Positions 4,356 through 27,704 of a DNA stretch of 64,000 bases are shown here, in pieces (within the stretch, counting starts at the first letter, position 1; the number at the start of each line of letters is the position of its first letter). The translations under genes were made by a program, and so were the position numbers. The notes below the pieces were generated by a model that made no database searches, was not told the origin of the DNA, and was given only the letters and a program-made list of their open reading frames with translations. Location: assembly GCF_014075995.1 (NCBI RefSeq), contig NZ_CP055153.1, positions 2,170,001-2,234,000 of the forward strand. Reading direction: 5' to 3'. The stretch comes from Adhaeribacter radiodurans. GTDB lineage: Bacteria > Bacteroidota > Bacteroidia > Cytophagales > Hymenobacteraceae.

Positions 4356-5042
4356 GTGAACGCCGTGTTGAAAATTAATTTAAATCATAAATCTTACCTC
4401 CGGAACCCAGAAGTAACCATTCTCGGACAGAAAATAGTAGCCGAAAGCATTCGCCTGATCGACTATTTAGGTTTTGAAGAATTTACCTTTAAAAAGTTAG
4501 CCCAGGAAATTAACTCCACGGAGGCTTCGGTGTATAGGTATTTTGAGAATAAACACAAATTGCTGATTTACCTGGTATCCTATTATTGGGTGTGGCTCGA
4601 CTATCAAATTAGCTTTCAGACCAATAACATTTCCGATCCGGCGCAGCGACTTGGCATTATCATTCGTATTCTAACGGAGGCCTCTTTAGATAATTTGCAA
4701 ACTACTTACATTGACGAAGCCGCCTTGCACCGGATTGTTATTGCCGATGCGGCAAAAGCTTACTTAACCAAAGGAGTGGATGAGGATAACAATGCCCAAT
4801 ATTTTCGGGAATATAAAACGCTATGCAGAAAAATTGCGGCGGTTCTTCTGGAGATTGCCCCGAATTACCCGTATCCGCATACGCTTATTAGCACAGTAAT
4901 GGAAGCTACTCACCAACAAACGTACTTTGTGCAACACCTGCCTTCCCTCACAGATATTAAATCCGGCGAAAATACAACGGGTAAAGTAGCTGATTTTTTA
5001 AAACATTTGGTTTTTGCGGCCATTGCCGCCTACAAAATTTAA
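4356..5042 (+). CDS. TetR/AcrR-family transcriptional regulator
   Basis: This 228-residue regulator has a TetR-type helix-turn-helix near residues 45-70 (FTFKKLAQEI, then TEASVYRYFENKHKLL), followed by an alpha-helical ligand domain with no recognisable ligand signature. It is the first gene of a tight operon with the exporter genes (10 bases to the next ATG), so it probably autoregulates and controls that exporter. The proposed start is GTG at 4356; another GTG nine bases downstream is equally possible, and no ATG is available before the conserved region. Assignment to TetR is firm; the signal it senses is unknown. Confidence 0.8.
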   Translation: MNAVLKINLNHKSYLRNPEVTILGQKIVAESIRLIDYLGFEEFTFKKLAQEINSTEASVYRYFENKHKLLIYLVSYYWVWLDYQISFQTNNISDPAQRLGIIIRILTEASLDNLQTTYIDEAALHRIVIADAAKAYLTKGVDEDNNAQYFREYKTLCRKIAAVLLEIAPNYPYPHTLISTVMEATHQQTYFVQHLPSLTDIKSGENTTGKVADFLKHLVFAAIAAYKI

Positions 5043-5052
5043 AGTTCAGACA

Positions 5053-7239: not shown

Positions 7240-7241
7240 TC

Positions 7242-8633: not shown

Positions 8634-10134
8634 CTATATTACCCAACGGGCGCTATTAGTTTTTTCTCGGGTATTCTCCGGTCAACCACTTCGTGCCTTC
8701 TTAACAAAAATTAACCAGTGTAAATTGCTCTTGCTGCTAGGGCTGCTAATTACCGGTAACCCCATCCGCAGCCAGGCCGATACTATAAAAGTAGTAACCT
8801 TTGCGGCTTTTTACGATCAAATTAAAGCCAATCATCCGGTGGTGCGTCAGGCTGCTTTATTACCGAAACAGGCGCAGCAGGAACTTCGCATAGCCCGCGG
8901 TAATTTCGATCCCCAGGCCATTAGTTATTACGACCGCAAAAATTTTAAAAATCAATTGTACTACGAGAACTGGAATAGTATGGTAAAAGTACCCTTGTGG
9001 TTTGGTGCCGATTTAAAAGCCGGTTACGAGCGCAACAAAGGCGTAAACGTTAACCCAGAAGAAAAAACGCCTGCCTCGGGTTTAACTTACGCAGGTATTT
9101 CCCTGCCCATCGGCCAAGGATGGCTCATCGACCAACGGCGGGCCACCTTGCGCCAGGCGCAGTTGTTAATTAATGCCGCTGAAGCTGATAAAATTAAAAT
9201 TATCAACAAATTACTACTGGAAGCCTCTAAAGATTACTGGGATTGGGTGTTAGCGTACCAACGATGGCAATTATACCAAACTGCCTATAACTTATCGGAA
9301 GTACGCTACCGTGGAGTGTCCGAACGGGCCCGGTACGGCGATTTAGCTGCCATAGATACCGTAGAAGCCCGAGTTGATTTAATAAACCGGCAGCAATTGT
9401 TGCAGCAATCCTTAACCGAATTCCAGAATAGCGGCCTGATAGTTTCAAACTACCTCTGGACTCCGGATCAAAATCCTGTAGAATTAGTTTCATCAGCTGT
9501 ACCGGCGTTTAATGAATCTGACTTAACCCTGATACCCGCGGACACGCTGCAGCAACTTTTCCGGTTTGCCCAGGAGAACCATCCGGATTTAATAAAACTG
9601 GGTTATAAATATAAGCAACTCGAAATTGAGCGCCGGTTAGCCGCCGATAAATTTAAACCAAAATTAAACCTGGAATATAATTTTTTGCGCCAGGACTTTG
9701 GCTTACTCGTAGAACAGCTGAACTCTACTTATTTTTTAAATAATTACAAATTAGGAGTGAGTTTTAACTACCCTTTGCTGCTCCGGAGCGAACGCGGCAA
9801 ATGGCAGCTTACCCGGTACAAGTTAACTGAAACCGATTTAGCGCTAACCCAAACCCAACGCGATATAACCACCGCCCTGCAAACCACTTATAACGAATTG
9901 CAGATGTTAGCGGCCCAAATAAAAACCCAGGAAACCCTGGTTTCTCAAGCTGATATCTTGCGCCGGGGCGAACAAACCCGGTTCGAAAACGGCGAAAGTT
10001 CTTTGTTTTTAGTAAATACCCGGGAAATGAATGTAATTAACCAGAATGTAAAATTTTGGGAATTAAAAACCAAATACGTAAAATCAATCGCATTTTTATA
10101 TTGGTCAGCTGGCAATATGGACCATTTAGAATAA
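8614..10134 (+). CDS. TolC-family outer-membrane efflux protein
   Basis: The 506-residue protein has an extended N-terminus, a hydrophobic signal segment at about residues 34-50 (LLLLLGLLITGNPI), and the duplicated helical-barrel architecture of TolC proteins, with many Gln/Ala/Leu-rich heptads and beta segments such as YNFLRQDFGLL. The start overlaps the HlyD coding end by 20 bases, as expected in a coupled operon. It would form the outer-membrane duct for the ABC/HlyD pair. No other channel gene sits near the peptide-export genes at 18.8-22.6 kb, so it could serve both; that is inference. Confidence 0.85.
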   Translation: MKPVLNNYITQRALLVFSRVFSGQPLRAFLTKINQCKLLLLLGLLITGNPIRSQADTIKVVTFAAFYDQIKANHPVVRQAALLPKQAQQELRIARGNFDPQAISYYDRKNFKNQLYYENWNSMVKVPLWFGADLKAGYERNKGVNVNPEEKTPASGLTYAGISLPIGQGWLIDQRRATLRQAQLLINAAEADKIKIINKLLLEASKDYWDWVLAYQRWQLYQTAYNLSEVRYRGVSERARYGDLAAIDTVEARVDLINRQQLLQQSLTEFQNSGLIVSNYLWTPDQNPVELVSSAVPAFNESDLTLIPADTLQQLFRFAQENHPDLIKLGYKYKQLEIERRLAADKFKPKLNLEYNFLRQDFGLLVEQLNSTYFLNNYKLGVSFNYPLLLRSERGKWQLTRYKLTETDLALTQTQRDITTALQTTYNELQMLAAQIKTQETLVSQADILRRGEQTRFENGESSLFLVNTREMNVINQNVKFWELKTKYVKSIAFLYWSAGNMDHLE

Positions 10135-16140: not shown

Positions 16141-16216
16141 AATAATATCAAATAAACAATTTACGCGGAAGCCGAAAAGCGGGTAGAGTAGGCAACAATT
16201 AATCAATTATTATTTT

Positions 16217-16366
16217 ATGAAAAAGTTTAAGATCACCAAAAAAGGTAAAAATTTAGAAGCATCGAAATTAACGAAAGATCAAATGTTTCTAACATCCGGT
16301 GGGTTGCGCTCAACTTGTACTTGCAACACCTACAATGTTTGTCATATAGACGGAACAGATGATTAA
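16217..16366 (+). CDS. RiPP precursor peptide with GG leader (grasp-with-spasm type)
   Basis: This 49-residue peptide was read directly from the DNA because it is too short for usual ORF cut-offs. The basic leader (MKKFKITKKGKNLEASKLTK) continues DQMFLTSGG, a double-glycine site fitting the C39 peptidase exporter downstream. Cleavage after G29 would release a 20-residue core starting at L30, with cysteines at 34, 36 and 42, several Thr/Ser (32, 33, 35, 38, 47), Tyr39 and acidic residues 45, 48 and 49. Such hydroxyl plus carboxyl residues are what ATP-grasp graspetide enzymes join. The gene is followed by a stem-loop and then the two maturase genes. An AGG-type ribosome site is not obvious, as is usual in this phylum. 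Confidence 0.85.
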   Translation: MKKFKITKKGKNLEASKLTKDQMFLTSGGLRSTCTCNTYNVCHIDGTDD

Positions 16367-16372
16367 AAGACG

Positions 16373-16409
16373 AATAGTCTGTTGGTGTAATCTATACCAG
16401 CAGACTATT
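16373..16409 (+). terminator. Stem-loop (attenuator) between precursor and maturase genes
   Basis: The 14-base arms aatagtctgttggt and accagcagactatt (one G-T wobble) enclose a 9-base loop, starting 7 bases after the precursor stop. The following bases are only moderately T-rich, so partial termination or 3'-end protection of a short abundant precursor mRNA is likelier than full termination. The role is inference; the inverted repeat is plain. Confidence 0.7.
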
Positions 16410-16444
16410 TATTTCAATTGTATTAACTTGTAAATAGAGTAATT

Positions 16445-17449
16445 GTGATTTGTATATTTAGCACTTCCCTCGATCAATCCACAACTGAAGTAATCCGATG
16501 GCTTCATTATTTAGGCAAAAAAGATGTAATCAGAGTGAATTATAATGATAGGAACATTCGCATTTGTTTGGATATTACAGAAGGGCAATTTTCTTTTAAA
16601 TGGAATGAAAAACTTGTTTATTTAAATGATATTGAAGCTGTATGGTACCGAAAAGGAAAAAATTGGCTGTGCGATCAATTCTTTTCGGTTACTGTGGAAG
16701 ATCGTGCTTCTTTTACCTCCTATTTTAATAATAAATTAAAGAACGAAGAGGCGAGATTAACAGAGTACCTGCATTACATTATTGAAAACACGGTTCCTGC
16801 TCTGGGATCTTCAACAAAAGGTAATTTAAATAAGTTAGTGGTACTGGCTATGGCTAAAGCTACTGGGTTGCTGATTCCGGACTTTTACATTACTAATTAC
16901 AGAGAAGGAGTAGAAAAAGTATTTAGACAATTGCCGGATTTAATTACAAAGTCTATGTCCGATGGACTTTATTTATTTGATACTATAGAGAAATCAACCG
17001 GTTATTTTTCCTACACGGAAAAATTAAATAAAAACGGAACTACCCTTTTACCCGAACAAATATCGCCGTCTTTTCTGCAGAAAAATATACATAAGAAATA
17101 TGAAGTCAGAGTGTTTTTTTTAGAGAATACGTGCTATTCTATGGCCATACTTTCCCAGAACGATGAGCAAACCAAAACCGATTACCGGAAATACAATGAA
17201 AAAAAGCCTAACCGGTATGTTCCTTATAAACTTCCCCGGGAGCTTGATCAAAAGATCAAGCTGTTATTCAAAAAGCTTGATTTAAATACCGGTTCCGTTG
17301 ATTTGATGATTGATCAGCAAGATAATGCTTATTTTCTGGAAATAAATCCGGTTGGTCAATTTGGAATGTTATCTGATCCGTGTAATTATTTTTTAGAAAA
17401 ACAAGTGGCTTTACACCTCTTACATCATGCACGAACCAGAACAAATTAA
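16445..17449 (+). CDS. gwsG: ATP-grasp peptide maturase (GwsG-like)
   Basis: This 334-residue ATP-grasp ligase resembles the grasp-with-spasm and microviridin-type peptide cyclases. The N-terminus reads ICIFSTSLDQSTTEVIRWL, typical of the family, followed by the PreATP-grasp part with AVWYRKGKNW. The C-terminal half has YEVRVFFLENTCYSMAI, the Mg-ligand aspartates in GSVDLMID and the terminal LEINPVGQFG motif, then CNYFLEKQVALHLL. The enzyme activates Asp/Glu side chains as acyl phosphates and joins them to Ser/Thr or Lys of the precursor. The start is GTG at 16445; no ATG exists before the conserved motif. Base composition is clearly more AT-rich than in flanking operons. The gene symbol rests on family resemblance only. 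Confidence 0.87.
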   Translation: MICIFSTSLDQSTTEVIRWLHYLGKKDVIRVNYNDRNIRICLDITEGQFSFKWNEKLVYLNDIEAVWYRKGKNWLCDQFFSVTVEDRASFTSYFNNKLKNEEARLTEYLHYIIENTVPALGSSTKGNLNKLVVLAMAKATGLLIPDFYITNYREGVEKVFRQLPDLITKSMSDGLYLFDTIEKSTGYFSYTEKLNKNGTTLLPEQISPSFLQKNIHKKYEVRVFFLENTCYSMAILSQNDEQTKTDYRKYNEKKPNRYVPYKLPRELDQKIKLLFKKLDLNTGSVDLMIDQQDNAYFLEINPVGQFGMLSDPCNYFLEKQVALHLLHHARTRTN

Positions 17450-17621
17450 TCTTTGGAGTACCGCTGAATCACACCTTCCTCTTGGATTCAAAAGGATTCA
17501 TCTGGAGAAGATACCGCCTCTTCAAATAGAAAATAAACTTGTACTTTATAATAAAAAGTATTGTTTCAGCACCAAGCAGGTATCCGTGGCCAACAAACCC
17601 ATTTCAAAAATTTTGGAATAA
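17427..17621 (+). CDS. Small uncharacterised protein between the two maturase genes
   Basis: The 64-residue ORF begins with an ATG overlapping the end of the ATP-grasp gene by 23 bases and stops 13 bases before the SPASM gene start. It therefore fits exactly into the operon and would be translationally coupled. The product (starts MHEPEQINLWSTAESHLPLG, ends KPISKILE) is soluble and slightly basic, with one Cys and no GG leader or membrane helix. I do not recognise a family. It could be a precursor-binding helper or an accessory subunit of the neighbouring enzymes. Its tight spacing is the main support. The competing long 5' extension of the SPASM frame would overlap it and is less likely. Confidence 0.6.
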   Translation: MHEPEQINLWSTAESHLPLGFKRIHLEKIPPLQIENKLVLYNKKYCFSTKQVSVANKPISKILE

Positions 17622-17634
17622 AAGTAATTCAACT

Positions 17635-18804
17635 ATGAGCTTACAATTAAATATTAATCTAGATACTTATCTTCATCTGCATGCTGATTGTATTCCGGTA
17701 AAGGGAGCCACGCGGTTTGTAATTTGCGACTTAACCAGAAACGAATTACTATTTTTTCCAAGCGAATATTATGAAGTATTGGAATATTTGAGAAGCGATA
17801 AGATTGGTTTTCTTCTAAAAGATATAATCAGTGAAGAAGAAAAAACTTTGGTTGTGGAATTTATAGAATTCTTAAATCAACACGAATTTATTTCCTTTTT
17901 GCACGATCCTTCTTTGTTTCCGGCTATTGAAGAAAAATGGGATATACCAGCGATTATTCAAAATGCCATTATTGATGTAGATATTACTTATCACGACTTT
18001 GATAAAATTTTTCAGGAATTAGATGAACTGGGTTGTCAGTTTGTTCAGATAAGATCTTTTTCTGATATTCTATCACTAGATGGCTTGTACCAGGTGCTTT
18101 CATCTGCTCATCATAAATCTATTCAGAGCATTGAATTAATTTTAAAATATAACGCTCATATTTCGGATGAAGCTTATATAAAATTAATAGAAGATCATCC
18201 TATCATAGCGGGTTTAACAATTCATTCTTCGCCGGAAAAAAGAACCTTAATTGTGGATTATGGCTGTGATATAGAATCAATTCGCTACGTTGATAAACAC
18301 ATTCACCTGGTTACTCAACAAATTACTTCTCAAGCTCATTGCGGAATTATAAATGTAAAGAGTTTAAATGCACCTACCGTAAATAATTTTTTCGAAACCA
18401 AATTATTTAATGGCTGCTTAAACCGGAAAGTGTCGGTTGATACCAATGGCGAGATCAAAAACTGTCCATCCATGCTAACATCCTACGGCAATATTAAGGA
18501 TACAAGTTTAAGCGAAGCGATTAATAACTACGGATTTACAGATACATGGAAGATTACCAAAGACCAGATAGCCGTTTGTAAGGATTGTGAATTCAGGTAT
18601 GTCTGTTCGGATTGCCGGGCGTACGTAGAGAATCCAGAGGATATTTTTAGTAAACCTCTAAAGTGCGGCTATAATCCTTATACCTGTGAGTGGGAAGAGT
18701 GGAGCCAGAACCCTTTAAAGCAGAAAGCCATTGCCTTTTACTACTTAAATGATTCGATAATGGATCAAAATCGGACCAAGGTAACTTCCGCTCTTAGCGC
18801 GTAA
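17635..18804 (+). CDS. gwsS: SPASM-domain peptide maturase (GwsS-like)
   Basis: The 389-residue protein has a C-terminal SPASM domain. Cysteines are at about 261 and 277 (GEIKNC), then 315, 318, 324 and 327 (VCKDCEFRYVCSDC), 344 and 351, enough for two auxiliary Fe-S clusters. The N-terminal half looks like a small TIM-barrel remnant but has no CxxxCxxC radical-SAM motif, consistent with my memory of grasp-with-spasm partners; it may recognise or modify the precursor. The start was placed at ATG 17635 because the frame extends upstream to 17539 only by overlapping the 64-residue ORF. It lies between the ATP-grasp maturase and the exporter, five bases before the latter. The biochemical role is unknown. 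Confidence 0.85.
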   Translation: MSLQLNINLDTYLHLHADCIPVKGATRFVICDLTRNELLFFPSEYYEVLEYLRSDKIGFLLKDIISEEEKTLVVEFIEFLNQHEFISFLHDPSLFPAIEEKWDIPAIIQNAIIDVDITYHDFDKIFQELDELGCQFVQIRSFSDILSLDGLYQVLSSAHHKSIQSIELILKYNAHISDEAYIKLIEDHPIIAGLTIHSSPEKRTLIVDYGCDIESIRYVDKHIHLVTQQITSQAHCGIINVKSLNAPTVNNFFETKLFNGCLNRKVSVDTNGEIKNCPSMLTSYGNIKDTSLSEAINNYGFTDTWKITKDQIAVCKDCEFRYVCSDCRAYVENPEDIFSKPLKCGYNPYTCEWEEWSQNPLKQKAIAFYYLNDSIMDQNRTKVTSALSA

Positions 18805-18809
18805 ATTGA

Positions 18810-21014
18810 ATGAAAAAATTTACTTTTTACCGGCAACTAGATGAGATGGATTGTGGTCCTACTTGTTTGAAAATGATTGCTGCTTTTTATGGTAAAGTAT
18901 ACGCAACCGAGTATTTAAGGGAACTAAGCCATACTACCCGCGAAGGAGTTTCGCTAATGGGATTATCCGAGGCAGCAGAAGCTATTGCTATGAAATCTTT
19001 CGCGGTAAAAGTTGATTTTACTACCCTGCTAAACGATGTAACTTTACCTTGTATTATTCACTGGCAACAAAACCATTTTGTAGTAGTTTACCGGATTGGA
19101 AAGAATAAAATATGGGTAGCCGACCCGAGTTTTAATTTAATCACCTACTCCAAAGAAGAATTTTTAGCCGGTTGGCTATATAACAAGAAAAAAACCGCTA
19201 CCGACGAAGGCATTGTTTTTATAGTAGAACCTACAGTTCAATTTTTTGAAGAAGAAACCGGCACAGAGAATCGCCGGACTGGAATAAAAATATTATTTCC
19301 TTACCTGAAACCTTTTACCAAATATATTTTACAGTTGTTTGTCGGCTTAATCATAGCCAGTATTCTGCAACTTATTTTTCCTTTTCTTACCCAAGGGGTA
19401 GTCGATTACGGCATAAAAAACCAGAACATCCACTTTATTTACTTAATGCTATTTGCCCAGTTAATGCTGTTCTTTTCGCAATCTACGGTAGAGATAATTA
19501 GAAGCTGGATTTTATTGCACGTGGGTTCCAGAATGAGCATTTCCCTATTATCTGATTTTCTGGTTAAGGTAATGAAGCTCCCAATTGCTTTTTTTGATTC
19601 AAAAATGACCGGCGACCTGTTGCAACGGATAGAAGACCATAACCGCATCGAATCTTTATTATCATCTACTACCTTAAACGTTTTATTTTCGGTGGTTAAC
19701 TTATTTGTATTCGGAACCATCCTGGCATTTTATAACCTATCTATTTTGCTGATTTTTTTGCTAGGGGCCGTGCTATATTCGGGCTGGGTTTTATTTTTTA
19801 TGAAAAGAAGAGCCACCCTGGACTTCAAGCGTTATAGTTATGAATCGGAAAACCGCAACAGCCTCATTCAATTAATTCAGGGAATGCAGGAGATTAAATT
19901 AAATAATTCGGAGAAGAGAAGGCGCTGGGAATGGGAAACTACCCAGGTAAAATTATTTAAAATTTCCCTGAAAGGATTAACAGTAGCTCAATACCAGACT
20001 TTAGGTGCCAACTTTATAAATCAAATCAAGAATATTTTCATTACGTTTTTATCCGCCAAGGCAGTAATACAGGGAGATATGACATTAGGGATGATGCTGG
20101 CGGTACAATACATTATCGGACAATTAAATGAGCCTATCAATAATTTTATATCTTTTACCAGAACGGCCCAGGACGCTTCTTTAAGCCTACAAAGACTGGG
20201 TGAAATTCATGATAAAGAAGAGGAAGAAAAAAATAATTTAGCGCAAACTCCTTTTCTTGCTACTTATGCCAAAGATATTTTTATAAATAATGTAAGCTTT
20301 AGTTACAGTGGGCCCAATAGTCCGGCAATTTTAAAAGATCTTGATTTTTATATTCCGCAGGGTAAAGTTACCGCCATTGTGGGAGCCAGCGGCAGCGGTA
20401 AAACCACCTTGTTAAAACTCTTACTTAAATTTTATGCTCCTACCCAAGGCAAAATACAAGTGGGTAATATTAGCCTAAATACAATAAGTGCCCGAGCCTG
20501 GCGAGAAAAATGTGGAGTAGTAATGCAAGACGGTTTTATTTTTGCCGACACCATAGCCCGCAATATCACCGAATCAGATTCCCACACTTCCATCGATAGA
20601 AAAAGGTTGCTGCATGCGGTACGAGTAGCCAATATAGAAAATTTCATAGAATCTCTACCACAGGGGTACAACACTAATATTGGCGGTAATGGCATTGCTC
20701 TAAGCGGCGGCGAAAAACAACGCTTATTAATTGCCCGGGCAGTATATAAAAATCCGGAATTTTTGTTTTTCGACGAAGCTACCAGCGCGCTGGATGCCAA
20801 TAACGAAAAAATTATAATGAAGCGCTTAGAGGATTTTTATGCCGGCCGAACAGTAGTAGTGATTGCGCACCGGTTGAGCACCGTAAAAAATGCGGACCAG
20901 GTACTTATGATGGACCAGGGAAGAATTATTGAAAGCGGTTCTCACGACTATTTAACTCAGACTAAAGGAGCGTATTATACCCTGGTTAAAAATCAATTGG
21001 AACTAGGCAATTAA
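18810..21014 (+). CDS. C39-peptidase ABC exporter for the RiPP
   Basis: This 734-residue bacteriocin-type exporter combines leader cleavage and transport. The N-terminal C39 peptidase (residues 1-125) has QLDEMDCGPTCL with catalytic Cys15, His89 in WQQNHFVVV and Asp105 in VADP. Six membrane helices lie at about 160-450. The ATPase domain is intact: Walker A VGASGSGKTT (about 523-532), signature LSGGEKQR (about 631), Walker B FLFFDEATSALD and the switch His in VIAHRLS. It would cut the precursor after the double glycine and export the core. It starts five bases after the SPASM gene. The intact motifs contrast with the degenerate exporter ATPase encoded at 5.0-7.2 kb. Confidence 0.93.
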   Translation: MKKFTFYRQLDEMDCGPTCLKMIAAFYGKVYATEYLRELSHTTREGVSLMGLSEAAEAIAMKSFAVKVDFTTLLNDVTLPCIIHWQQNHFVVVYRIGKNKIWVADPSFNLITYSKEEFLAGWLYNKKKTATDEGIVFIVEPTVQFFEEETGTENRRTGIKILFPYLKPFTKYILQLFVGLIIASILQLIFPFLTQGVVDYGIKNQNIHFIYLMLFAQLMLFFSQSTVEIIRSWILLHVGSRMSISLLSDFLVKVMKLPIAFFDSKMTGDLLQRIEDHNRIESLLSSTTLNVLFSVVNLFVFGTILAFYNLSILLIFLLGAVLYSGWVLFFMKRRATLDFKRYSYESENRNSLIQLIQGMQEIKLNNSEKRRRWEWETTQVKLFKISLKGLTVAQYQTLGANFINQIKNIFITFLSAKAVIQGDMTLGMMLAVQYIIGQLNEPINNFISFTRTAQDASLSLQRLGEIHDKEEEEKNNLAQTPFLATYAKDIFINNVSFSYSGPNSPAILKDLDFYIPQGKVTAIVGASGSGKTTLLKLLLKFYAPTQGKIQVGNISLNTISARAWREKCGVVMQDGFIFADTIARNITESDSHTSIDRKRLLHAVRVANIENFIESLPQGYNTNIGGNGIALSGGEKQRLLIARAVYKNPEFLFFDEATSALDANNEKIIMKRLEDFYAGRTVVVIAHRLSTVKNADQVLMMDQGRIIESGSHDYLTQTKGAYYTLVKNQLELGN

Positions 21015-21323
21015 TATTTACTAAATAGTTGCTCGTTAGTAGTTGATCATTGTTAACTAAATAAATTTATCAGGACTTTCGCCTAACATGATAAAAGTCC
21101 TAATCTGGGCAAATCTATTAGTGCAGAAGGAAAAAGTAAGCGGAATAAAGAAGTTGAATCTGTAAGAGTAAAAAGTAGGCAAAAAGTCCCTCTTTGAAGG
21201 AGATAAGGGGAGGATAAAAAGCTTAGCCCATTCTATTTGCGGGAGCCCTGTTTATATTAACTATTCGAATAAAAATGTATATCAGTTTAACAACGAGCAA
21301 TCAATAATGAACAACGTAATAGT
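21015..21323. other. Gap between exporter and adaptor genes
   Basis: Just over 300 bases lie between two same-strand genes of the peptide locus. A small perfect inverted repeat (aggacttt/aaagtcct, 21072-21101) without a T-tract is the only structure seen. The adaptor may therefore have its own promoter here. Confidence 0.4.
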
Positions 21324-22622
21324 ATGGACAGGTACAGCAAAGTAGAGGATATCCTGGATAGAAGCGACGACATTACCGAGGTAATGACGCAAATTCCGCA
21401 TTGGATAGTGAGAGGAGGAATGACTTACTTATTTTTTTGCATTGTTTCGTTGTTAGGCATTGGTTGGTTTATCCGGTATCCGGATGTGATTAATTCGAAG
21501 CTGATACTTACTTCCTCTAATCCACCTGCTCGAATAGTAGCGCAAGCTAATGGTAAACTTCAGCATATTTTTTTTAAAGAAAACGACCAGGTAGAAACAG
21601 GAGCATTACTAGGCGTAATCGAAAACCCGGCGAATAGTTCAGAAGTATTGGATTTACTAAATTCATTACGTTCTACTCATTTTTCAACCCTACTTACTAA
21701 ACAAACCCTAAATTTACCCGATGAAAGTAACCTGGGCGAATTGCAGAAAGAATACGCAGCTTTTAACCGGGCTTACCAGGAATTAAAACTTTTCAACCAA
21801 ATAGATCCGGTTGCCAAAGAAATTTCAGCCACACGGCAGGAATTAAAGGAACATATAAACTTATTGGAAAAGCAGGCCAAGGAAAAGGAATTTTATAAAA
21901 CCGAAGTTAACTTAGTAAAAAAAGATTATGATCGAAATGCCTTTCTGTACAAAAATAAAGTTATTGCCGACAAGCAAATAGAAGATAATGAAAGGGAATT
22001 ACTCGGGGTTAAACGAAGCTTTGAACAACTAGAATCCAACATTGCCTCCACTAAAATTAAGTTAGTGCAATTGCAAAAAGCCCTAGTTTTATTAGTAATA
22101 CAAAATCAGGAAAAAAGAAATCAATATGAGTTAAGCTTTACGGAGTCTTATAAAAATTTATTAAGCGCACTATCAAACTGGGAGCAAAAATACCTGTTAA
22201 AATCTCCTATTTCGGGGAAAGTAACTTATTTAAAATACTGGAGCAATAATCAATATGTAACCACAGGGGATGAAGTAATGGTAATTGTACCGCATACGGC
22301 CCAGACAATCATTGGTAAAATAGCGTTGCCTATCCAAAACTCCGGCAAAGTAAAAGTGGGACAAAAAGTAAATATCTACTTGAAAAACTATCCTTACCAG
22401 GAGTTTGGAACTATACTTGGCCTGGTAAAATCCATATCATTGGTTCCGAAAGATAATTTGTATGTAATTGAAATTATACTTCCAAGTGGTCTAAAAACCA
22501 GTTATCATAAAAAGTTAGATTTTAAGCAGGAAATGCAGGGCAGTGCCGAAATTATTACAGAAGAATTAAGACTATTGGAACGAATATTTTATCAATTCCG
22601 GGTCTTGAGGCAGAATATATAA
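21324..22622 (+). CDS. HlyD-family adaptor of the RiPP exporter
   Basis: The 432-residue membrane-fusion protein has a short cytoplasmic N-terminus, one transmembrane helix at about residues 34-52 (YLFFCIVSLLGIGWFI), a lipoyl half-motif (ANGKLQHIFFKENDQVETGA), a long coiled coil (about 110-275) and the second lipoyl half (LKSPISGKVTYLKYW). The C-terminal beta-barrel ends in RIFYQFRVLRQNI. It follows the C39 exporter gene and is followed by a strong terminator, marking the end of the locus. This architecture is common for bacteriocin and microcin secretion adaptors of Bacteroidota. No outer-membrane channel gene accompanies it. Confidence 0.88.
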   Translation: MDRYSKVEDILDRSDDITEVMTQIPHWIVRGGMTYLFFCIVSLLGIGWFIRYPDVINSKLILTSSNPPARIVAQANGKLQHIFFKENDQVETGALLGVIENPANSSEVLDLLNSLRSTHFSTLLTKQTLNLPDESNLGELQKEYAAFNRAYQELKLFNQIDPVAKEISATRQELKEHINLLEKQAKEKEFYKTEVNLVKKDYDRNAFLYKNKVIADKQIEDNERELLGVKRSFEQLESNIASTKIKLVQLQKALVLLVIQNQEKRNQYELSFTESYKNLLSALSNWEQKYLLKSPISGKVTYLKYWSNNQYVTTGDEVMVIVPHTAQTIIGKIALPIQNSGKVKVGQKVNIYLKNYPYQEFGTILGLVKSISLVPKDNLYVIEIILPSGLKTSYHKKLDFKQEMQGSAEIITEELRLLERIFYQFRVLRQNI

Positions 22623-22966
22623 AAATATCTTTAAACTAAAAATAAACTGAGTCTGGACAAAGCACTTAATTCTTGGCCAGACTCAGTTTATTTATAAGAC
22701 ACAAAATAAAAGGTTTTAATAATTAAATAGTAGCCATAGTACAGATTAGGCATTTTTAAAAATATAACTATTTAGAATGGCACAAAGGAAAGATAGCTAA
22801 AAGGCTAAGGGAACAGAGGTACTCCCTTTTACATTTAATTTCCATTAAATGAATGGCTTACATTTTGAAGATTATTCGTTAAAACTTTTAACGTTTAGGT
22901 TTATACATCTCCTAGAAAGCAGGATGGTTAATTAAATCATGTAGGCCATTTGGTAATCTCTTTCTT
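22623..22966. other. Convergent intergenic region after the RiPP locus
   Basis: Apart from the hairpin at 22640-22693 this region is AT-rich and featureless; the minus-strand orphan gene ends at its right side. Confidence 0.4.
22640..22693 (+). terminator. Strong hairpin closing the RiPP locus
   Basis: A perfect 17-base stem (aaataaactgagtctgg with ccagactcagtttattt) encloses a 20-base loop, starting 18 bases after the HlyD stop. The 3' side of the stem is itself T-rich. It is a likely transcription terminator for the peptide locus. Confidence 0.75.
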
Positions 22967-23395
22967 TCATAACTGTTTATTTTCAACGTAATGCATTTCT
23001 AGCAGCCAATCCATGGCTTCATAATAATGGTTGAAATTTTGAAATTGGATACCCTTATTCTGCTGTAGCAAAGTAGTATATAGATTTGTGATTTTCTGGT
23101 CATAAGTTGTATTATTTGTAACGATACGCGCAATTTTTTCCAGATAAGGTAGAGCCAAAGTTTGCCTAAAATATTGGTGAATACTATAATCATCAATATC
23201 CGGACTGTTTTGAGTATGAACAAAGGTAGTATCCAGTAAAATAAATCTGATCTGATGTTTAGTGGCTAAGATTAATACTTGTTGCCAAATAATGGCAAAG
23301 TCATCTTGTTTTAAAGGTCCAATCCAGCGCACCGTCAAAATGCTGCTTTCGGTATTAAACTCTAGTTCTATATCATTTAAGGTAAATAAAATCAT
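22967..23395 (-). CDS. STAS/SpoIIAA-like hypothetical protein
   Basis: The 142-residue product from ATG 23395 has the alternating pattern of a small alpha/beta STAS-like domain. Strand FNTESSILTVRWIGPL leads to a helix (FAIIWQQVLILATKH), a strand (IRFILLDTT) and a later helix, with the C-terminal YYEAMDWLLE helix. Short proteins of this kind are frequent in Hymenobacteraceae and annotated as hypothetical. An earlier in-frame start at 23461 adds a 22-residue stretch of poor quality, so I prefer the later ATG. It is a lone cytoplasmic gene in an AT-rich group of minus-strand orphans next to the RiPP locus. The function is unknown. Confidence 0.65.
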   Translation of the reverse strand: MILFTLNDIELEFNTESSILTVRWIGPLKQDDFAIIWQQVLILATKHQIRFILLDTTFVHTQNSPDIDDYSIHQYFRQTLALPYLEKIARIVTNNTTYDQKITNLYTTLLQQNKGIQFQNFNHYYEAMDWLLEMHYVENKQL

Positions 23396-23584
23396 GAGCA
23401 AGCAAATTTTTATTATTCTATTTCTAATTGGGTTGTATAAGCCTGGCAAGAGTAGGGGCACAAGTTTTTTCGCTTACTCTTATCAGGCTTACTTAACTAC
23501 CAACTTTATTTATTCTATTAAACTTTTTATATTCTTTTAACCTTTAACTCAACAATTTATCGTAAAAGAGAGCCCTTATAAGTT

Positions 23585-23836
23585 TTAGGAGAGATTCAGG
23601 TCCGATAGATTTATGGAATCCAGATATGGTTCAAAACAGGCATGATCACGATAGGAAACCAACCGAACCACTCTAGGAAAATTGGAAGAAAGCCATATCT
23701 CCACGAAAAAATACTCCAAAAAATGCAAGCTAATATCGTGGGAACCAAGCGAACGGTCCAACAATTTAATGCCGAATTGTCCTATAAGAGAAACTTGCTG
23801 ATTAATTGATTTTCGTCTAAATTCATATAAATCCAT
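23585..23836 (-). CDS. Small hypothetical protein
   Basis: The 83-residue product begins MDLYEFRRKSINQQVSLIGQ and contains HFLEYFFVEIWLSS followed by CFEPYLDSINLSDL. The pattern of aromatic strands and the terminal PYLDxIxLSDL is one I associate with short orphan proteins of Hymenobacter-type genomes, so it is probably real. There is no signal peptide, membrane helix or catalytic motif. It lies between two other short minus-strand genes. The function is unknown; the family link is from memory only. Confidence 0.55.
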   Translation of the reverse strand: MDLYEFRRKSINQQVSLIGQFGIKLLDRSLGSHDISLHFLEYFFVEIWLSSNFPRVVRLVSYRDHACFEPYLDSINLSDLNLS

Positions 23837-23972
23837 AATGCTTCAGTTTAGATGGATTGTTAATTATTTGTTTAAATAGCCAATACTTAAAAGATTATTT
23901 TATAAAATCCCATATAGAAAACATCCTATAGAGGGCAGATAATGGTAGATTTAATAAGAAGGTATATGGGGG

Positions 23973-24167
23973 CTAAATGCAGTATTTAATCAGGAAAGTA
24001 TCTTCCCGGAATAATTCCAAGCCCTTTCTGCTAGCTTCCCACCAAGAGTTGCAAACACCAAAAACTTTTTCATGGTGAATAATTAAATACTTTCCAGCAT
24101 AAATTTTTTTGAGCTGTTCTTTATGCCGGGTATAAAAAGAAATATTATTTAACATAAGCTTTTTCAT
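23973..24167 (-). CDS. Small DUF5678-like protein
   Basis: The 64-residue product has the short beta-strand plus helix arrangement LKKIYAGKYLIIHHEKVFGV, then a Trp-Trp helix and EDTFLIKYCI. This is close to DUF5678-type modules (YxGKYVAI ... EA ... FLIK) found across many bacteria with no known role. The start at 24167 is the first ATG; another at codon 5 is possible. It belongs to the AT-rich minus-strand orphan cluster. Given its size, confidence depends mainly on the recognisable pattern. Confidence 0.55.
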   Translation of the reverse strand: MKKLMLNNISFYTRHKEQLKKIYAGKYLIIHHEKVFGVCNSWWEASRKGLELFREDTFLIKYCI

Positions 24168-24365
24168 GGACAGATTAATTGATTAAAAATGGAAATAAGG
24201 ACAATAGAGCGAAAAGAATTACAAACCACTTGGAGGCATAGCTTTACCTTTGAACTAGAGTAAAAAGTATGACTGCTATCCAGGAATATTAAGTTATTCC
24301 TGTTCAGAGTTAATTTTATACTCTTTTGCTCAAACCTGTTCTTAATAGGTTTTACCAGGTAAGGT

Positions 24366-25322
24366 CTAAGTGGTGGCTACCATTTGAATAACCTCCCAAA
24401 TAGCATCAGCAGTAGGTTGCCAACTAGCTTCTACCTTTTCTTGAATAAATAAATGCATATTAGCTTTATTTACAGCTGATTTATTTAAGGAGGCACTCTT
24501 TAAATTAGCTGGTTGCTGCTCACCTGTTGCATGTAGGCTTTTAAGAAGTTGGTTCTTTTCTATTTCTATAGATTCGAGTTTAGCAGGAGAAATACCATAA
24601 TCCTTTACTAAAGTAACAGCCATATCACCTGTACTGGTAAGGATATAATCACACTTTCGGAAGGCTTGTTTTTCCAGTTCATACATCCACCCTTTACTAT
24701 CCGGTTGGCAATGTTCATAACTTAAAGAGTCTACCTGGAGTATTAGTTTTTTTCCGGTCAATAATTTTAATTCTGTTCCAGCCAAAAAGGTTCTGTAGTT
24801 ATATGCATAAATAATATCAAAATTTCGCTGAAGTGCCCAACGACTAGTATATCGGGCATATTCAATTACTTGCGCATCTAAACTTAAAGCATCGAACTCT
24901 TTATACCCAAAAATGTTAGCAGGTCCTGTATTCTTTTCCTGAATTTTACTGGAATTACTTTGCGAACCTGTTCCGGATGTACTTATTCTTTTGAACGCTT
25001 CTGGTCTTACATAGCCTTCTGGTGGCGTTACATAATTACTGGTACCATAAAGAGGAATATTATTTTTAATATAAGGTTCATTCGCAAATGGCAACGGACG
25101 CGGCTTAGTGGAACTAGTTTGGATTCCTTGCAAATCTAACTGATCCAAGCCTGTGAGTTCGGCGTTGTTGAGAATAAAATTCGGATCCGTATGGGGCAAA
25201 AGCACCGATAAATCTACCCGTTGAGATAAGGCTTTAGCAATATAGTAACAACTAGTCTCCTGCTCTTCACGAATAGCAGTAGAAAATTCCCAACCAAGAA
25301 GTAATACATTCAGTTTGCTCAT
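24366..25322 (-). CDS. Glycosyltransferase-4-like protein lacking the donor-binding domain
   Basis: The 318-residue protein opens like the GT-B N-terminal domain of large Bacteroidota glycosyltransferases (VLLLGWEFSTAIREEQETSC, then YIAKALSQRVDLSVLLP) and keeps FDIIYAYNYRTFLAGTELK, LILQVDSLSYEH and the KCDYILTSTGDMAV segment at about residues 170-235. In full-length relatives a second Rossmann domain with the EX7E donor site follows. Here only about 80 residues remain, Ser/Asn/Ala-rich, ending WEVIQMVATT. The usual glycine-rich GGLGTA loop and HATEFDR motif are replaced. It is probably a catalytically inactive or degenerate relative; a regulatory or binding role is possible. The frame itself is intact. 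Confidence 0.6.
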   Translation of the reverse strand: MSKLNVLLLGWEFSTAIREEQETSCYYIAKALSQRVDLSVLLPHTDPNFILNNAELTGLDQLDLQGIQTSSTKPRPLPFANEPYIKNNIPLYGTSNYVTPPEGYVRPEAFKRISTSGTGSQSNSSKIQEKNTGPANIFGYKEFDALSLDAQVIEYARYTSRWALQRNFDIIYAYNYRTFLAGTELKLLTGKKLILQVDSLSYEHCQPDSKGWMYELEKQAFRKCDYILTSTGDMAVTLVKDYGISPAKLESIEIEKNQLLKSLHATGEQQPANLKSASLNKSAVNKANMHLFIQEKVEASWQPTADAIWEVIQMVATT

Positions 25323-26123
25323 AATAAATTAATTTGATTAAACATTTAAATAATCAAGGAAACCAAGTCCAATAATTTATTGGCATTTCCCAATTTGTAA
25401 AATAGGTATAGCTCATTCTTAAATCCGGATAGCTGTTAAACTTCATTTTATCCAATATCAATATAGGTTTTATAAATAAATATAACTTTATATATAATAA
25501 AATGCAATATTTACAGTTTTAGTAATTTGCTATAATATCCCTAAAAAAGGAAGTTATACGTAATAAATTTTTAAAATTTAAGTATTTATACGGATAGAGC
25601 AACTACAATAATGCCTTTTAAAGTGGGTCTTGCAGTTTTTTAAATGTAACCTAATGTTATAAAGCAGATGAAGATTTAGAACAAAATGATTATGAGACTA
25701 GATTTCTTCATACCAGTAAAGTTAAATCTATAATTGGGCGAAACGTAGCTCTAGGCAACTAGTTTCTGATAATGAAGCAATTAAAATGTAATACTTTATA
25801 TTAAAAAATAACTTGACCCGCCAGTAATATTACATCAGGATAATGCACTTATATAAATTAACTATTTTGGATAACAGTATATTTAATACTATTTCATAGT
25901 GATTACAAAAATGCCTTATCTATTTTACAGTATCAGATTAAGGATCTTGATTACAACTATTGAGCAGTAATCAATAAGTAAACTGCTAAGTGAGAAAAGA
26001 ATTAAGGTATAAAGCTGACTCTTGCTTTTATTTATTTTTAATTTTCTTCAAATCCTCTACTGTTCAGTTGTAACCTTTCACCTGTTTAGTTACTCCATAT
26101 AGATAGAACTAAACTAATAGGAT
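25323..26123. other. 800-base divergent AT-rich region
   Basis: This stretch separates the minus-strand glycosyltransferase-like gene from the plus-strand DUF4142 operon and must hold both promoters. Very AT-rich from about 25440 to 25560. No gene, repeat or clear promoter motif was recognised. Confidence 0.4.
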
Positions 26124-26666
26124 ATGAAAACGCTTTCAGAATTTAGAAAATTAGCACTAGCGGGGTATTTTTCCATTCTTGTTTTTCCCGTCATTGCCCA
26201 AAACAACCCTAAACTTTCCGATGCAGAAGTAGCAGCAGTAGCGGTTACGGCTAATCAGATTGACATTGATAAAGCCAAACTCGCAAAAGATAAATCTAAG
26301 AATCCAGAAGTTCTTCAATTTGCCGAAACTATGGCAAACGATCACCAGGGAGTAATTCAACAAGCATCGGCCCTCGTGAAAAAGTTAGGAGTTACTCCAA
26401 AGGATAATGCCGTTAATCAACAATTATTAGCTGAAGCGAATAAAACAGAAAAATCTTTACAGGCAAAAAATGGTAAAGACTTTGATAAAGCCTATATTGA
26501 TAATGAAGTTACGTATCACCAGGCCGTAATCTCAGCTGTGAGTGATCTTTTAATTCCTGAAACCGACAACCAAGAGCTGAAAGGATTACTGCAAAATATT
26601 ATACCCGCCTTAAAGGCACATCTGCAGCACGCCCAAATGTTGCAAAAGCAATTTAGTTCTAAGTAA
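26124..26666 (+). CDS. DUF4142 secreted protein
   Basis: The 180-residue product has a signal peptide (cleavage about residue 25, PVIAQ) followed by a DUF4142 domain, a ferritin-like four-helix bundle. The typical segments are LSDAEVAAVAVTANQIDIDK, FAETMANDHQGVIQQ and DKAYIDNEVTYHQAVI, with conserved His residues in each. It is presumably periplasmic. Family members accompany stress-response genes, but the activity is unknown. It starts an operon with a cupredoxin six bases downstream and an ECF sigma factor after that. Confidence 0.85.
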   Translation: MKTLSEFRKLALAGYFSILVFPVIAQNNPKLSDAEVAAVAVTANQIDIDKAKLAKDKSKNPEVLQFAETMANDHQGVIQQASALVKKLGVTPKDNAVNQQLLAEANKTEKSLQAKNGKDFDKAYIDNEVTYHQAVISAVSDLLIPETDNQELKGLLQNIIPALKAHLQHAQMLQKQFSSK

Positions 26667-26672
26667 AAGAAT

Positions 26673-26999
26673 ATGCTTAATATTTGGATTTTGGGATTAT
26701 GTCTTAACCTGATTACAGGTTATTTCTTCGAACATTCGGAAAGCTTCCCGCCGAAAGTTTATACAGTAGAGATAAAAGGTATGGAGTTTCTGCCCGCTCA
26801 GATTAAAGTAAAAAAAGGAGATACTATTGTTTGGATAAATAAAGATATAGTGGTTCATACTGTTACAGAAGAAAAAAGAAAAGCCTGGACCTCCTCTCTA
26901 ATTCCTATTGGGAAATCCTGGAAAATGGTAGTAAAAGAAAGTTCGTTATATTACTGTACGCTACACCCGGTAATGAAAGGGCAAATACAGGTACAATAA
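26673..26999 (+). CDS. Cupredoxin (plastocyanin/azurin-like) protein
   Basis: This 108-residue small blue-copper-type protein has a short hydrophobic N-terminus that could be a signal or anchor (MLNIWILGLCLNLITGYF). The cupredoxin fold shows EIKGMEFLPAQIKVKKGDTI, the first ligand His in VVHTVTEE, and the C-terminal ligand loop YYCTLHPVMKG supplying Cys, His and Met. All four type-1 copper ligands are therefore present. It lies six bases after the DUF4142 gene and 45 before the sigma factor gene. A role in periplasmic electron transfer or redox sensing is plausible, not shown. Confidence 0.85.
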   Translation: MLNIWILGLCLNLITGYFFEHSESFPPKVYTVEIKGMEFLPAQIKVKKGDTIVWINKDIVVHTVTEEKRKAWTSSLIPIGKSWKMVVKESSLYYCTLHPVMKGQIQVQ

Positions 27000-27044
27000 T
27001 TTTTTAATAATATCAGAGAGAAAAGCACTTAAAAATTATTTGCT

Positions 27045-27704
27045 ATGGTACAAAACACCGAAGAGGAAATTATTCAAAGAATTTTGGAGGGACAATTAGA
27101 GCTTTTTGAGATTCTAATTAGAAGAAATAATCCTTTTCTTTATAAAGTAGGCAAGTCGTATGGCTACCAGCACCAGGATGTCGAAGATTTGATGCAGGAA
27201 ACTTTTATTAGCGCCTATAAAAGTTTAGGCAGCTTTCAACACCGGTCGTCTTTTAAAACCTGGATTATTAAAATTATGCTGAGCCATTGTTACCAGAAAA
27301 ATCATAAGTTTAGTTTTAAATACGAAAAAGCCGGTTATAGAGAAATAGTAGATAAAAATGTTCCGTTGTTTTCGGGTAGCCCTTCAGATATGGAGAAAAG
27401 AATTTTTAACCAGGAGCTCAAGGCTGTAATGGAAAAAGCCGTCAATAAAATTCCCCTTGATTACCGGATGGTATTTTCGTTAAGGGAGTTAAACGGATTA
27501 AGTGTGGCGGAAACTGCCGAAGCATTAGCTATAACGGAGGTAAACGTAAAGGTACGGCTAAACCGGGCTAAAAATATGCTGCGCAAAGAGATCGAAAAAT
27601 ATTATTCGCCCGAAGAAATATTTGAATTTAATCTTATCCATTGCGACCGGATAGTGGATAAGGTGATGAATGCAATAGCCAAAGAAAATTTTACTACTTC
27701 TTAA
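27045..27704 (+). CDS. ECF-type RNA polymerase sigma factor
   Basis: The 219-residue sigma-70-family factor has region 2 with DVEDLMQETFISAYKSL and SSFKTWIIKIMLSHCY (about residues 45-85), and region 4 with IPLDYRMVFSLRELNG followed by the helix-turn-helix VAETAEALAITEVNVKVRLN (about 140-175). A roughly 35-residue C-terminal tail follows region 4. No anti-sigma gene is adjacent; instead the operon encodes periplasmic DUF4142 and cupredoxin proteins upstream. It ends at a convergent terminator. Control could be transcriptional or through an unlinked anti-sigma. Confidence 0.88.
   Translation: MVQNTEEEIIQRILEGQLELFEILIRRNNPFLYKVGKSYGYQHQDVEDLMQETFISAYKSLGSFQHRSSFKTWIIKIMLSHCYQKNHKFSFKYEKAGYREIVDKNVPLFSGSPSDMEKRIFNQELKAVMEKAVNKIPLDYRMVFSLRELNGLSVAETAEALAITEVNVKVRLNRAKNMLRKEIEKYYSPEEIFEFNLIHCDRIVDKVMNAIAKENFTTS

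What the first reader, a model, noticed from the sequence alone, without database searches (positions are those of the whole stretch)
16217..22622. Compact AT-rich grasp-with-spasm RiPP locus
Seen: a GG-leader peptide, ATP-grasp ligase, unknown 64-residue protein, SPASM protein without radical-SAM motif, C39 exporter and HlyD adaptor in one direction, closed by a perfect hairpin. Known: ATP-grasp plus SPASM pairs define the grasp-with-spasm class, with few characterised products. Inference: the locus makes and exports a 20-residue modified peptide, and its low GC suggests transfer.
Basis: partly seen in the sequence, partly recalled or inferred. Interest (0 to 1): 0.78.

Follow-up and report, generated by a model that had tools for sequence, protein, structure and literature searches.

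The report
Ring-peptide gene cluster with pseudoknot leader
This is a complete but previously described type of bacterial gene cluster that should make and export a small ester-ringed peptide; less expected are that its iron-sulphur partner protein looks like a peptide-holding relic of a radical enzyme, and that the peptide gene carries a small knotted RNA element in front of it.

Summary
In detail: 16217-22622 is a one-direction RiPP operon of precursor, ATP-grasp ligase (TIGR04192, 327.5 bits), 64-aa protein, SPASM protein (TIGR04193, 352.5 bits), C39 exporter and HlyD adaptor. It is a new member of a known kind, the Bacteroidota ATP-grasp/SPASM graspetides (branch 5 of PMC8939145); the 'unknown' 64-aa protein fits that paper's LPL family. 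Three additions. (1) The SPASM protein is not a radical-SAM enzyme: 0 of 45 have CX3CX2C, 6 of 45 also lack the SPASM cysteine patterns, and its model resembles CteB/SuiB and, weakly, a leader-binding RRE; I read it as a partner of the ligase. (2) A hairpin follows the precursor gene here and in 11 of 11 testable relatives. (3) An Rfam DUF805b RNA lies 22 nt before the precursor. In 67 copies its loop pairs with its tail, an H-type pseudoknot with strong covariation, absent from the Rfam structure line shown; a two-helix pattern finds it in 6 of 49 such loci. Low GC is weak evidence of transfer. Chemistry and regulation are inferred, not measured.

The parts
16162..16194 (+). DUF805b RNA (RF02914) upstream of the precursor; stem CGC/GCG plus loop-tail helix GCC/GGC (H-type pseudoknot)
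   Evidence: Rfam 37.2 bits, gathering 35.6; only above-cut-off match found in the genome, with 150 of 5,338 first-look candidates scored; covariation in other copies
16217..16366 (+). GwsP precursor peptide, 49 aa, GG leader 1-29
   Evidence: ORF; upstream of GwsG as in relatives; TIGR04149 only 15.7 bits, cut-off 25; one match in the genome
16304..16363 (+). predicted 20-residue core LRSTCTCNTYNVCHIDGTDD: hydroxyl donors S32 T33 T35 T38 T47, acceptors D45 D48 D49, no Lys
   Evidence: sequence; masses
16372..16410 (+). intercistronic stem-loop between precursor and ligase
   Evidence: -24.3 kcal/mol, z -8.15; gap z <= -3.7 in 12 of 12 loci testable, the window included, against 5 of 35 control gaps (Fisher)
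16445..17449 (+). GwsG ATP-grasp graspetide synthetase
   Evidence: TIGR04192 327.5 bits; related to solved ATP-grasp ligases 5ig9, 7m4s, 7mgv (CdnC), 5ig8; R222, D286, E299, N301 invariant in 18 aligned sequences, the window's included
17427..17621 (+). LPL-family small protein (SHLPLGF ... NKPISKI), 64 aa
   Evidence: same position in relatives; motif counts; held-out profile test
17635..18804 (+). GwsS: RRE-like N-terminal domain, partial barrel without SAM motif, SPASM domain with 7-Cys pattern
   Evidence: TIGR04193 352.5 bits; model and fold search; Cys patterns
18810..21014 (+). C39 peptidase-containing ABC exporter
   Evidence: Peptidase_C39, ABC_membrane, ABC_tran; DCGPTC, NHFVVVY and VADP present (that they hold the catalytic residues is recalled)
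21324..22622 (+). HlyD-family adaptor
   Evidence: HlyD_3 37.9 bits; TIGR01843 102.1 bits, below its cut-off 208.65
22637..22696 (.). closing hairpin, folds on both strands
   Evidence: z -6.80 on +, -6.76 on -

Best explanation
The locus makes a graspetide. The precursor has a pseudoknot-bearing element in front and a hairpin behind it that probably lets it be made in excess over the enzymes (inferred). The GG leader is bound by the RRE-like N-terminal domain of GwsS, a former radical-SAM/SPASM protein that has lost the SAM motif and part of the barrel and now acts as partner and scaffold (inferred). With the LPL protein as a further partner, GwsG uses ATP to form one to three esters between Ser/Thr and the C-terminal Asp residues of the core (inferred from the family). 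The C39 exporter cuts after Gly29 and exports the 20-mer with HlyD and an outer-membrane channel encoded elsewhere (inferred). Shown here: gene content and families, absence of the SAM motif, an RRE-like model, motif and hairpin conservation, RNA covariation.
For: Families above cut-off; ligase related to solved ATP-grasp ligases, key residues conserved. GwsS: of 45 proteins of 300 aa or more, the window's included, 0 have CX3CX2C, 31 the full 7-Cys SPASM pattern, 8 only CX2CX5C, 6 neither; the 6 form one side of a branch (100/99) and sit beside GwsG and a small ORF in the LPL position. AF2 model: residues 1-90 at block means 70-93 pLDDT with four strands, three helices, one strand. Foldseek best hits are CteB 5wgg/5why (E 6.7e-5 to 9.1e-4), then SuiB (1.6e-3 to 1.2e-2); the RRE-leader complex chain TbiB1 5v1v_A is rank 19 (E 0.08, probability 0.99, target TM 0.62, 83 columns of 88). 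A core Cys is not required: 4 of 22 loci with 7-Cys GwsS and candidate precursors have only Cys-free candidates, and relative L079 has two near-identical cores that differ by Ser/Cys at one site. A precedent: MirB needs partner MirC, whose N-domain weakly resembles an RRE (PMC13097080, passages).
Against: Overall pTM is 0.48 and the SPASM part of the model is unreliable; whole-chain TM-scores to CteB/SuiB are only 0.16-0.27, and TIM-barrel enzymes of other families fill most ranks from 7 on. Pfam finds no RRE/PqqD model in any of 19 GwsS, and sequence searches of solved structures find neither CteB nor SuiB. The 7-Cys clade keeps its cysteines, so the clusters probably do something there. The 6 proteins without the patterns still have 2-5 Cys in their last 150 residues, so some metal binding is not excluded, and they lie below the TIGR04193 cut-off. 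Only 2 of those loci gave GG precursors in the script search. No chemistry was measured.
Confidence: 0.6

Rival explanations
1. GwsS is a second modifying enzyme: its SPASM iron-sulphur clusters do redox or sulphur chemistry on the core cysteines, for instance thioethers, as PMC8939145 suggests for branch 5.
For: 7-Cys SPASM pattern in the window and in 31 of 45 in all; three core cysteines here; conserved cysteines in many branch 5 precursors (PMC8939145 passages).
Against: No SAM motif in 45 of 45, so radical-SAM chemistry is unlikely; the cysteine patterns are lost in 6 that keep ligase and a small ORF in the LPL position, though 2-5 Cys remain; Cys-free cores beside 7-Cys GwsS in 4 of 22 loci and a Ser/Cys swap in L079.
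Confidence: 0.24
2. The LPL protein, not GwsS, is the PqqD-like leader-binding chaperone (a suggestion of PMC8939145).
For: Encoded between ligase and SPASM gene, directly upstream of the latter, in the loci examined and in that paper.
Against: Its own AF2 model has pLDDT 68.4, pTM 0.26 and no RRE-like order of elements, while an RRE-like domain is already in GwsS. A role on the ligase is as likely (its LPL motif recalls the leader motif Phhx(1,2)h, PMC8939145); neither was tested.
Confidence: 0.15
3. The locus is a decayed or silent remnant.
For: Patchy: 1 of 8 held genomes of the genus; one match each for the maturases and precursor.
Against: Frames intact, key ligase residues conserved, hairpins and RNA element intact.
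Confidence: 0.08
4. DUF805b acts as DNA (promoter or protein site), not as RNA.
For: Fixed distance to start codons (72 of 79 at 15-28 nt); transcription starts are unknown.
Against: Two crossing helices covary (91.7% of cells paired; slid controls 14.1-48.3%); TAnnTTTG boxes upstream are few (8 in 81 sequences) and scattered.
Confidence: 0.12

Closest known systems
Branch 5 graspetide loci, PMC8939145 (passages read)
   Same: Bacteroidota; GG precursor, ATP-grasp ligase, small LPL protein directly upstream of the TIGR04193 SPASM protein; C39 exporter and HlyD are among that paper's frequent neighbours
   Different: Cluster-23 proteins, said to be in almost all branch 5 loci, were not searched for here and none was recognised; the paper calls the SPASM protein a radical SAM enzyme, which the sequences do not bear out
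Group 14 graspetides, PMC13097080 (parts 1-2 of 6 and passages read)
   Different: That this locus belongs to group 14 was not tested; no group 14 product is described in what I read
Microviridin/chryseoviridin ligases (solved 5ig8, 5ig9, 7m4s, 7mgv; MdnB/MdnC as names of the first two are recalled)
   Same: ATP-grasp ligase family
   Different: No SPASM or LPL partner (recalled); leader motif PFFARFL (recalled) absent from GwsP
Rosaritide MirB/MirC (PMC13097080)
   Same: Ligase dependent on a partner whose N-domain weakly resembles an RRE
   Different: MirC is a divergent PpiC-type protein, not a SPASM protein
CteB and SuiB, radical SAM/SPASM RiPP enzymes
   Same: Best fold matches; RRE, barrel, SPASM order (recalled for CteB/SuiB)
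   Different: GwsS lacks the SAM cluster motif; its model has four strands of a barrel, fewer than the six strand-helix units usual for radical SAM (recalled)
TIGR04150 pseudo-rSAM protein (NCBIfam)
   Same: The idea of a radical-SAM-like protein without the SAM motif beside GG peptides is in its name; weak match in the C-terminal part (18.7 bits, cut-off 250)
   Different: Far below its cut-off
DUF805b RNA, RF02914
   Same: 37.2 bits, above gathering 35.6
   Different: The Rfam structure line printed shows one helix; a second, crossing helix is supported here

Membership tests
Grasp-with-spasm graspetides (TIGR04192/TIGR04193, branch 5) | GwsG equivalog above cut-off | tested here: met
   327.5 bits, cut-off 230
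Grasp-with-spasm graspetides (TIGR04192/TIGR04193, branch 5) | GwsS equivalog above cut-off | tested here: met
   352.5 bits, cut-off 175
Grasp-with-spasm graspetides (TIGR04192/TIGR04193, branch 5) | GG precursor with Ser/Thr donors and Asp/Glu acceptors in the core | tested here: met
   sequence; similar candidates in relatives
Grasp-with-spasm graspetides (TIGR04192/TIGR04193, branch 5) | LPL protein directly upstream of the SPASM gene | tested here: met
   SHLPLGF and KPISKI in the 64-aa ORF; the paper's own alignment was not available
Grasp-with-spasm graspetides (TIGR04192/TIGR04193, branch 5) | cluster-23 protein in the locus (almost all branch 5 loci) | not tested
   no model at hand; none recognised
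Grasp-with-spasm graspetides (TIGR04192/TIGR04193, branch 5) | ester or amide cross-links in the product | not testable with these tools
   needs mass spectrometry
Radical SAM/SPASM maturases | CX3CX2C SAM cluster motif | tested here: not met
   0 of 45 GwsS, the window's included
Radical SAM/SPASM maturases | SPASM 7-Cys pattern | tested here: met
   window; 31 of 45 in all
RRE (PqqD-like) leader-binding domain in GwsS | fold: small sheet followed by three helices | tested here: inconclusive
   order of elements fits; 5v1v_A TM 0.62 but rank 19, E 0.08; no Pfam hit in 19
RRE (PqqD-like) leader-binding domain in GwsS | binds the precursor leader | not testable with these tools
   needs binding assay
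TIGR04149 GG precursor | score above 25 bits | tested here: not met
   15.7 bits
DUF805b RNA (RF02914) | score above gathering 35.6 | tested here: met
   37.2 bits

The most novel reading that the evidence does not exclude
DUF805b is an H-type pseudoknot RNA that controls translation of secreted peptides and effectors across Bacteroidota, RiPP precursors among them, so that this graspetide belongs to a peptide regulon; and GwsS is an RRE-bearing relic of a radical-SAM enzyme that serves the ATP-grasp ligase as leader-binding partner, with its iron-sulphur clusters dispensable.
Probability: 0.37. Interest if true: 0.68.

Novelty: new member of a known kind. Interest (0 to 1): 0.5.

Why it matters
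The locus itself adds one more member to a large class with little chemistry known. Two by-products matter more. If GwsS is a leader-binding partner and not a second enzyme, co-expression attempts need precursor, ligase, LPL and GwsS together, and searches for radical-SAM thioethers in this class are misdirected. If DUF805b is a pseudoknot in front of peptide and other genes, it offers a handle on when Bacteroidota make such peptides and a way to find precursor genes that gene callers miss.

Tried and rejected
Sequence searches for an RRE in GwsS found nothing (Pfam on 19 members; solved structures); only the fold comparison did. Fusions of the ligase with LPL were looked for and not seen: open frames of matches over the cut-off reach 365 aa at most. 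A read-through alignment of ligase and LPL of two loci was made to test docking, but MAFFT placed the other LPL rows wrongly and nothing was folded from it. Synteny with congener G415: only the M20 peptidase and porin stretches match in 39 kb fetched, no empty site. A Bacteroidota -7 box (recalled as TAnnTTTG) at a fixed place upstream of DUF805b: none. A link between core cysteines and the SPASM cysteine state: none evident, but precursors of the 6-member clade are few. DUF805b is not universal in these loci: Rfam scans of whole loci found it above gathering in 1 of 11 and 0 of 10; the pattern scan found it in 6 of 49.

Mended on the second reading: the window was counted among the 45 GwsS and the 12 hairpin loci and is now named as such; the 6-member GwsS clade lacks the SPASM cysteine patterns but keeps 2-5 cysteines, for which I lowered the best explanation from 0.62 to 0.60, raised the rival enzyme from 0.22 to 0.24 and lowered the novel case from 0.40 to 0.37; the genome-wide RNA searches scored only part of their first-look candidates. 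An earlier count said 15 of 21 held-out LPL ORFs; recounted it is 14 of 21.
Full report
Observation. The six genes are as described. GwsG and GwsS pass their equivalog cut-offs; the exporter has C39, membrane and ATPase domains, and the last gene is a HlyD adaptor. The 20-residue core has five Ser/Thr, three Asp and no Lys, so at most three links, all esters, are possible if only Ser/Thr/Lys and Asp/Glu side chains take part. Searches of the 6.94-Mb genome gave one match each for GwsS, GwsG and GwsP.

Distribution. TIGR04193 is above cut-off in 12 of 395 Bacteroidota genomes sampled and in 4 of 200 of the same family, where the window genome is the only one of 8 held genomes of its genus with a match (one of the 8 is 78% complete). 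TIGR04192 is above cut-off in 29 of 395 genomes of the class. In a tree of 45 GwsS the window pairs with L079, a locus of another genus of the same family (98/99; the bootstrap had not settled), and the highest identity to any row is 42%. The GC of the six genes is 0.34-0.384 against 0.422 (sd 0.037) for 37 other window ORFs that I picked, but the five of these that follow (22967-27704) have 0.333-0.385. A congener with the flanking porin at 80% identity shares, in 39 kb fetched, only the M20 peptidase and porin stretches. Transfer is possible, not shown.

The 64-aa protein. PMC8939145 (passages only) describes branch 5 graspetide loci of Bacteroidota with a small 'LPL' protein directly upstream of the SPASM gene, and says that where LPL was not identified 'unrelated small proteins' take its place. 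The window protein has SHLPLGF. Among 46 loci (45 from the script plus L076 added by hand; 45 distinct proteins) 26 have LP plus a hydrophobic residue in the first 45 residues (3.5 expected from shuffles) and 18 a strict K[PK][IVY][ST][KR] near the C-terminus (0.14 expected); both patterns are my own. Of the 20 without the first, 8 have the second, so at least some of the small proteins without LPL are kin. Held-out test: 29 further ligase loci were fetched and 7 dropped as genomes already used; of 22 examined 21 qualified, and 14 of 21 small ORFs score 13.9 bits or more with a profile from the first set, against 2 of 2,100 shuffles at 13.8 or more. On its own the window protein gives a poor model (pLDDT 68.4, pTM 0.26).

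GwsS. Of 45 proteins of at least 300 aa, the window's included (shorter, broken or partial ones dropped), none has CX3CX2C; 31 have the whole 7-Cys SPASM pattern, 8 keep CX2CX5C only, 6 have neither. The 6 form one side of a branch (100/99); the three groups need 3 changes on the tree, shuffled mean 13.2. The 6 still have 2-5 Cys in the last 150 residues, score 105.8-151.3 bits for TIGR04193 (cut-off 175) and match no other NCBIfam model at 0.01, and sit beside a ligase and a small ORF in the LPL position. PMC8939145 calls the family radical SAM enzymes; the sequences do not bear that out. The AF2 model from 19 sequences (mean pLDDT 67.5, pTM 0.48; 122 of 389 residues below 50, the SPASM part among them) has block means of 70-93 in the first 90 residues, in the order four strands, three helices, one strand, then four strands alternating with three helices. 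Foldseek against the PDB puts CteB first (5wgg 6.7e-5, 5why), then SuiB, then mostly TIM-barrel enzymes; the RRE chain 5v1v_A is rank 19 with E 0.08, probability 0.99 and target TM 0.62 over 83 columns of 88. That CteB and SuiB combine an RRE, a barrel and SPASM is recalled. Which model residues align to 5v1v was not printed; that they are the N-terminal ones is inferred. Pfam and sequence searches of solved structures see no such relation.

Precursors. A script search upstream of the ligase gave candidates in 28 loci. Of the 22 with 7-Cys GwsS, 4 have only Cys-free candidates and 7 at least one; L079 has two near-identical cores, one with Ser and one with Cys at the same site. Some candidates may be wrong. 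So a core Cys does not seem to be what the SPASM clusters require.

Hairpins. The gap after the precursor folds with z -8.15. In the 12 loci, the window included, where the nearest candidate precursor ends 25-300 nt before the ligase, all 12 gaps have z <= -3.7 (100 shuffles each), against 5 of 35 co-directional control gaps of the same loci (60 shuffles each; Fisher p 1.2e-7). Such hairpins behind RiPP precursor genes are familiar (recalled).

DUF805b RNA. Rfam finds one RNA in the window: RF02914 at 16162-16194, 37.2 bits, gathering 35.6, 22 nt before the GwsP start. It is the only above-cut-off match found in the genome; 150 of 5,338 first-look candidates were scored. Of 24 genomes with TIGR04193 matches, 15 have copies above cut-off (scored likewise in part), among them copies before both gws precursors of G099, and before one (with a sub-threshold one before the other) of G146. 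In the sample of 395 Bacteroidota 76 have it above cut-off, including all 12 that have TIGR04193 above cut-off; that comparison is confounded by kinship. I chose 81 sites (69 above cut-off, 12 weaker ones mostly near gws loci or in tandem) and fetched 80. Of the 69, 65 have an ORF that starts 15-28 nt after the element (random positions: 285 of 4,000), and in 26 it is a short ORF with a GG or GA site (33 of 4,000); among positions with an ORF that is 26 of 65 against 33 of 285. Some of the 26 look like signal peptides rather than GG leaders. Most of the rest, 34 of 69, are longer ORFs, so the element is not specific to RiPPs. In 49 gws loci a pattern with both helices gives 12 hits: 11 stand 17-41 nt before short peptide ORFs in 6 loci, 1 (L038) is spurious; 5 shuffled sets gave 1 hit. 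The pattern was written after seeing the window, G146 and G099 copies, so these are not independent of it.

Pseudoknot. In an alignment of 67 elements (66 above cut-off outside gws precursors, plus the window) I counted stem 1 (columns 3-6 with 19-22) and a second helix between loop and tail (11-13 with 39-41): 91.7% of cells pair, against 66.0% in shuffles and 14.1-48.3% when slid. Helix 2 alone has 98.0%: one position GC 25, UA 25, CG 9, AU 3, GU 1, other 4; one CG 61, UA 5, UG 1; one invariant CG. The outermost pair of stem 1 is weak (30 of 67 unpaired). Parsed separately, 73 of 77 elements have all three tail pairs, shuffled mean 30.0, maximum 44 of 10,000; 4 of 81 were not parsed. Shuffles do not allow for relatedness of the copies. 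The helix crosses stem 1, so it is an H-type pseudoknot. The structure line printed for RF02914 has one helix. Function is unknown; the fixed distance to the start codon suggests an effect on translation initiation, which is inference.

What is known. Searches of the held library: 'grasp-with-spasm' 0 papers, graspetide + SPASM 3, graspetide 37, 30 listed, 'TIGR04193' 1, RRE-Finder + SPASM + ATP-grasp 0, RRE-Finder + SPASM 3, a five-term search on SPASM without radical SAM 1, ATP-grasp + SPASM 6, 'DUF805 RNA' 0, DUF805 + 'RNA motif' 0. The library holds only openly licensed papers, so the original descriptions of these families may be outside it, and the pseudoknot may be known there. Of PMC13097080 I read parts 1 and 2 of 6 and passages; of PMC8939145 passages; of the others the listing only. 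MirC of PMC13097080 is the nearest precedent that I saw for a partner-dependent graspetide synthetase.

Verdict. The reading of GwsS as a leader-binding relic and the pseudoknot leader are the parts worth following.

Noticed in passing
L131 (G530), about 6251-8034 on the reverse complement: Ten tandem near-identical GG precursor genes before a ligase whose GwsS lacks the SPASM cysteine patterns.
   Followed up: no
L228, L232 (G470), L235, L236 (G539), L233, L234 (G551), L231 (G550): Small ORFs with NGLFVxELEERLEM, ending SCCLD in G470, G539 and G550, each behind a DUF805b-like element below the Rfam cut-off; about 3 kb upstream of GwsG in G470 and G539, about 6 kb in G551. They may be the missing precursors of the cluster-less GwsS clade or another RiPP.
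   Followed up: partly
L161, L163, L164, L169, L184, L199, L224: DUF805b elements also precede long ORFs that by eye look like phage-tail-collar, caspase-like and other proteins; impressions from memory, not searched (the attempt failed).
   Followed up: no
L039 and L040: Nearly identical gws loci in MAGs labelled Chitinophagaceae and Phycisphaerales; probably a binning error.
   Followed up: no
44688-47868: An AcrB-type efflux pump gene is split into two overlapping frames that match profile positions 2-417 and 414-1019 of PF00873; sequencing error or real break not decided.
   Followed up: partly
5014-10134: A second export set about 6 kb upstream: an ABC transporter with no C39 match and, by eye, an adaptor and a TolC-like gene; it could supply the outer-membrane channel that the gws operon lacks.
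   Followed up: partly
21015-21323: A 309-base gap without a + strand ORF over 25 aa between exporter and adaptor genes, unusual in an otherwise tight operon.
   Followed up: no
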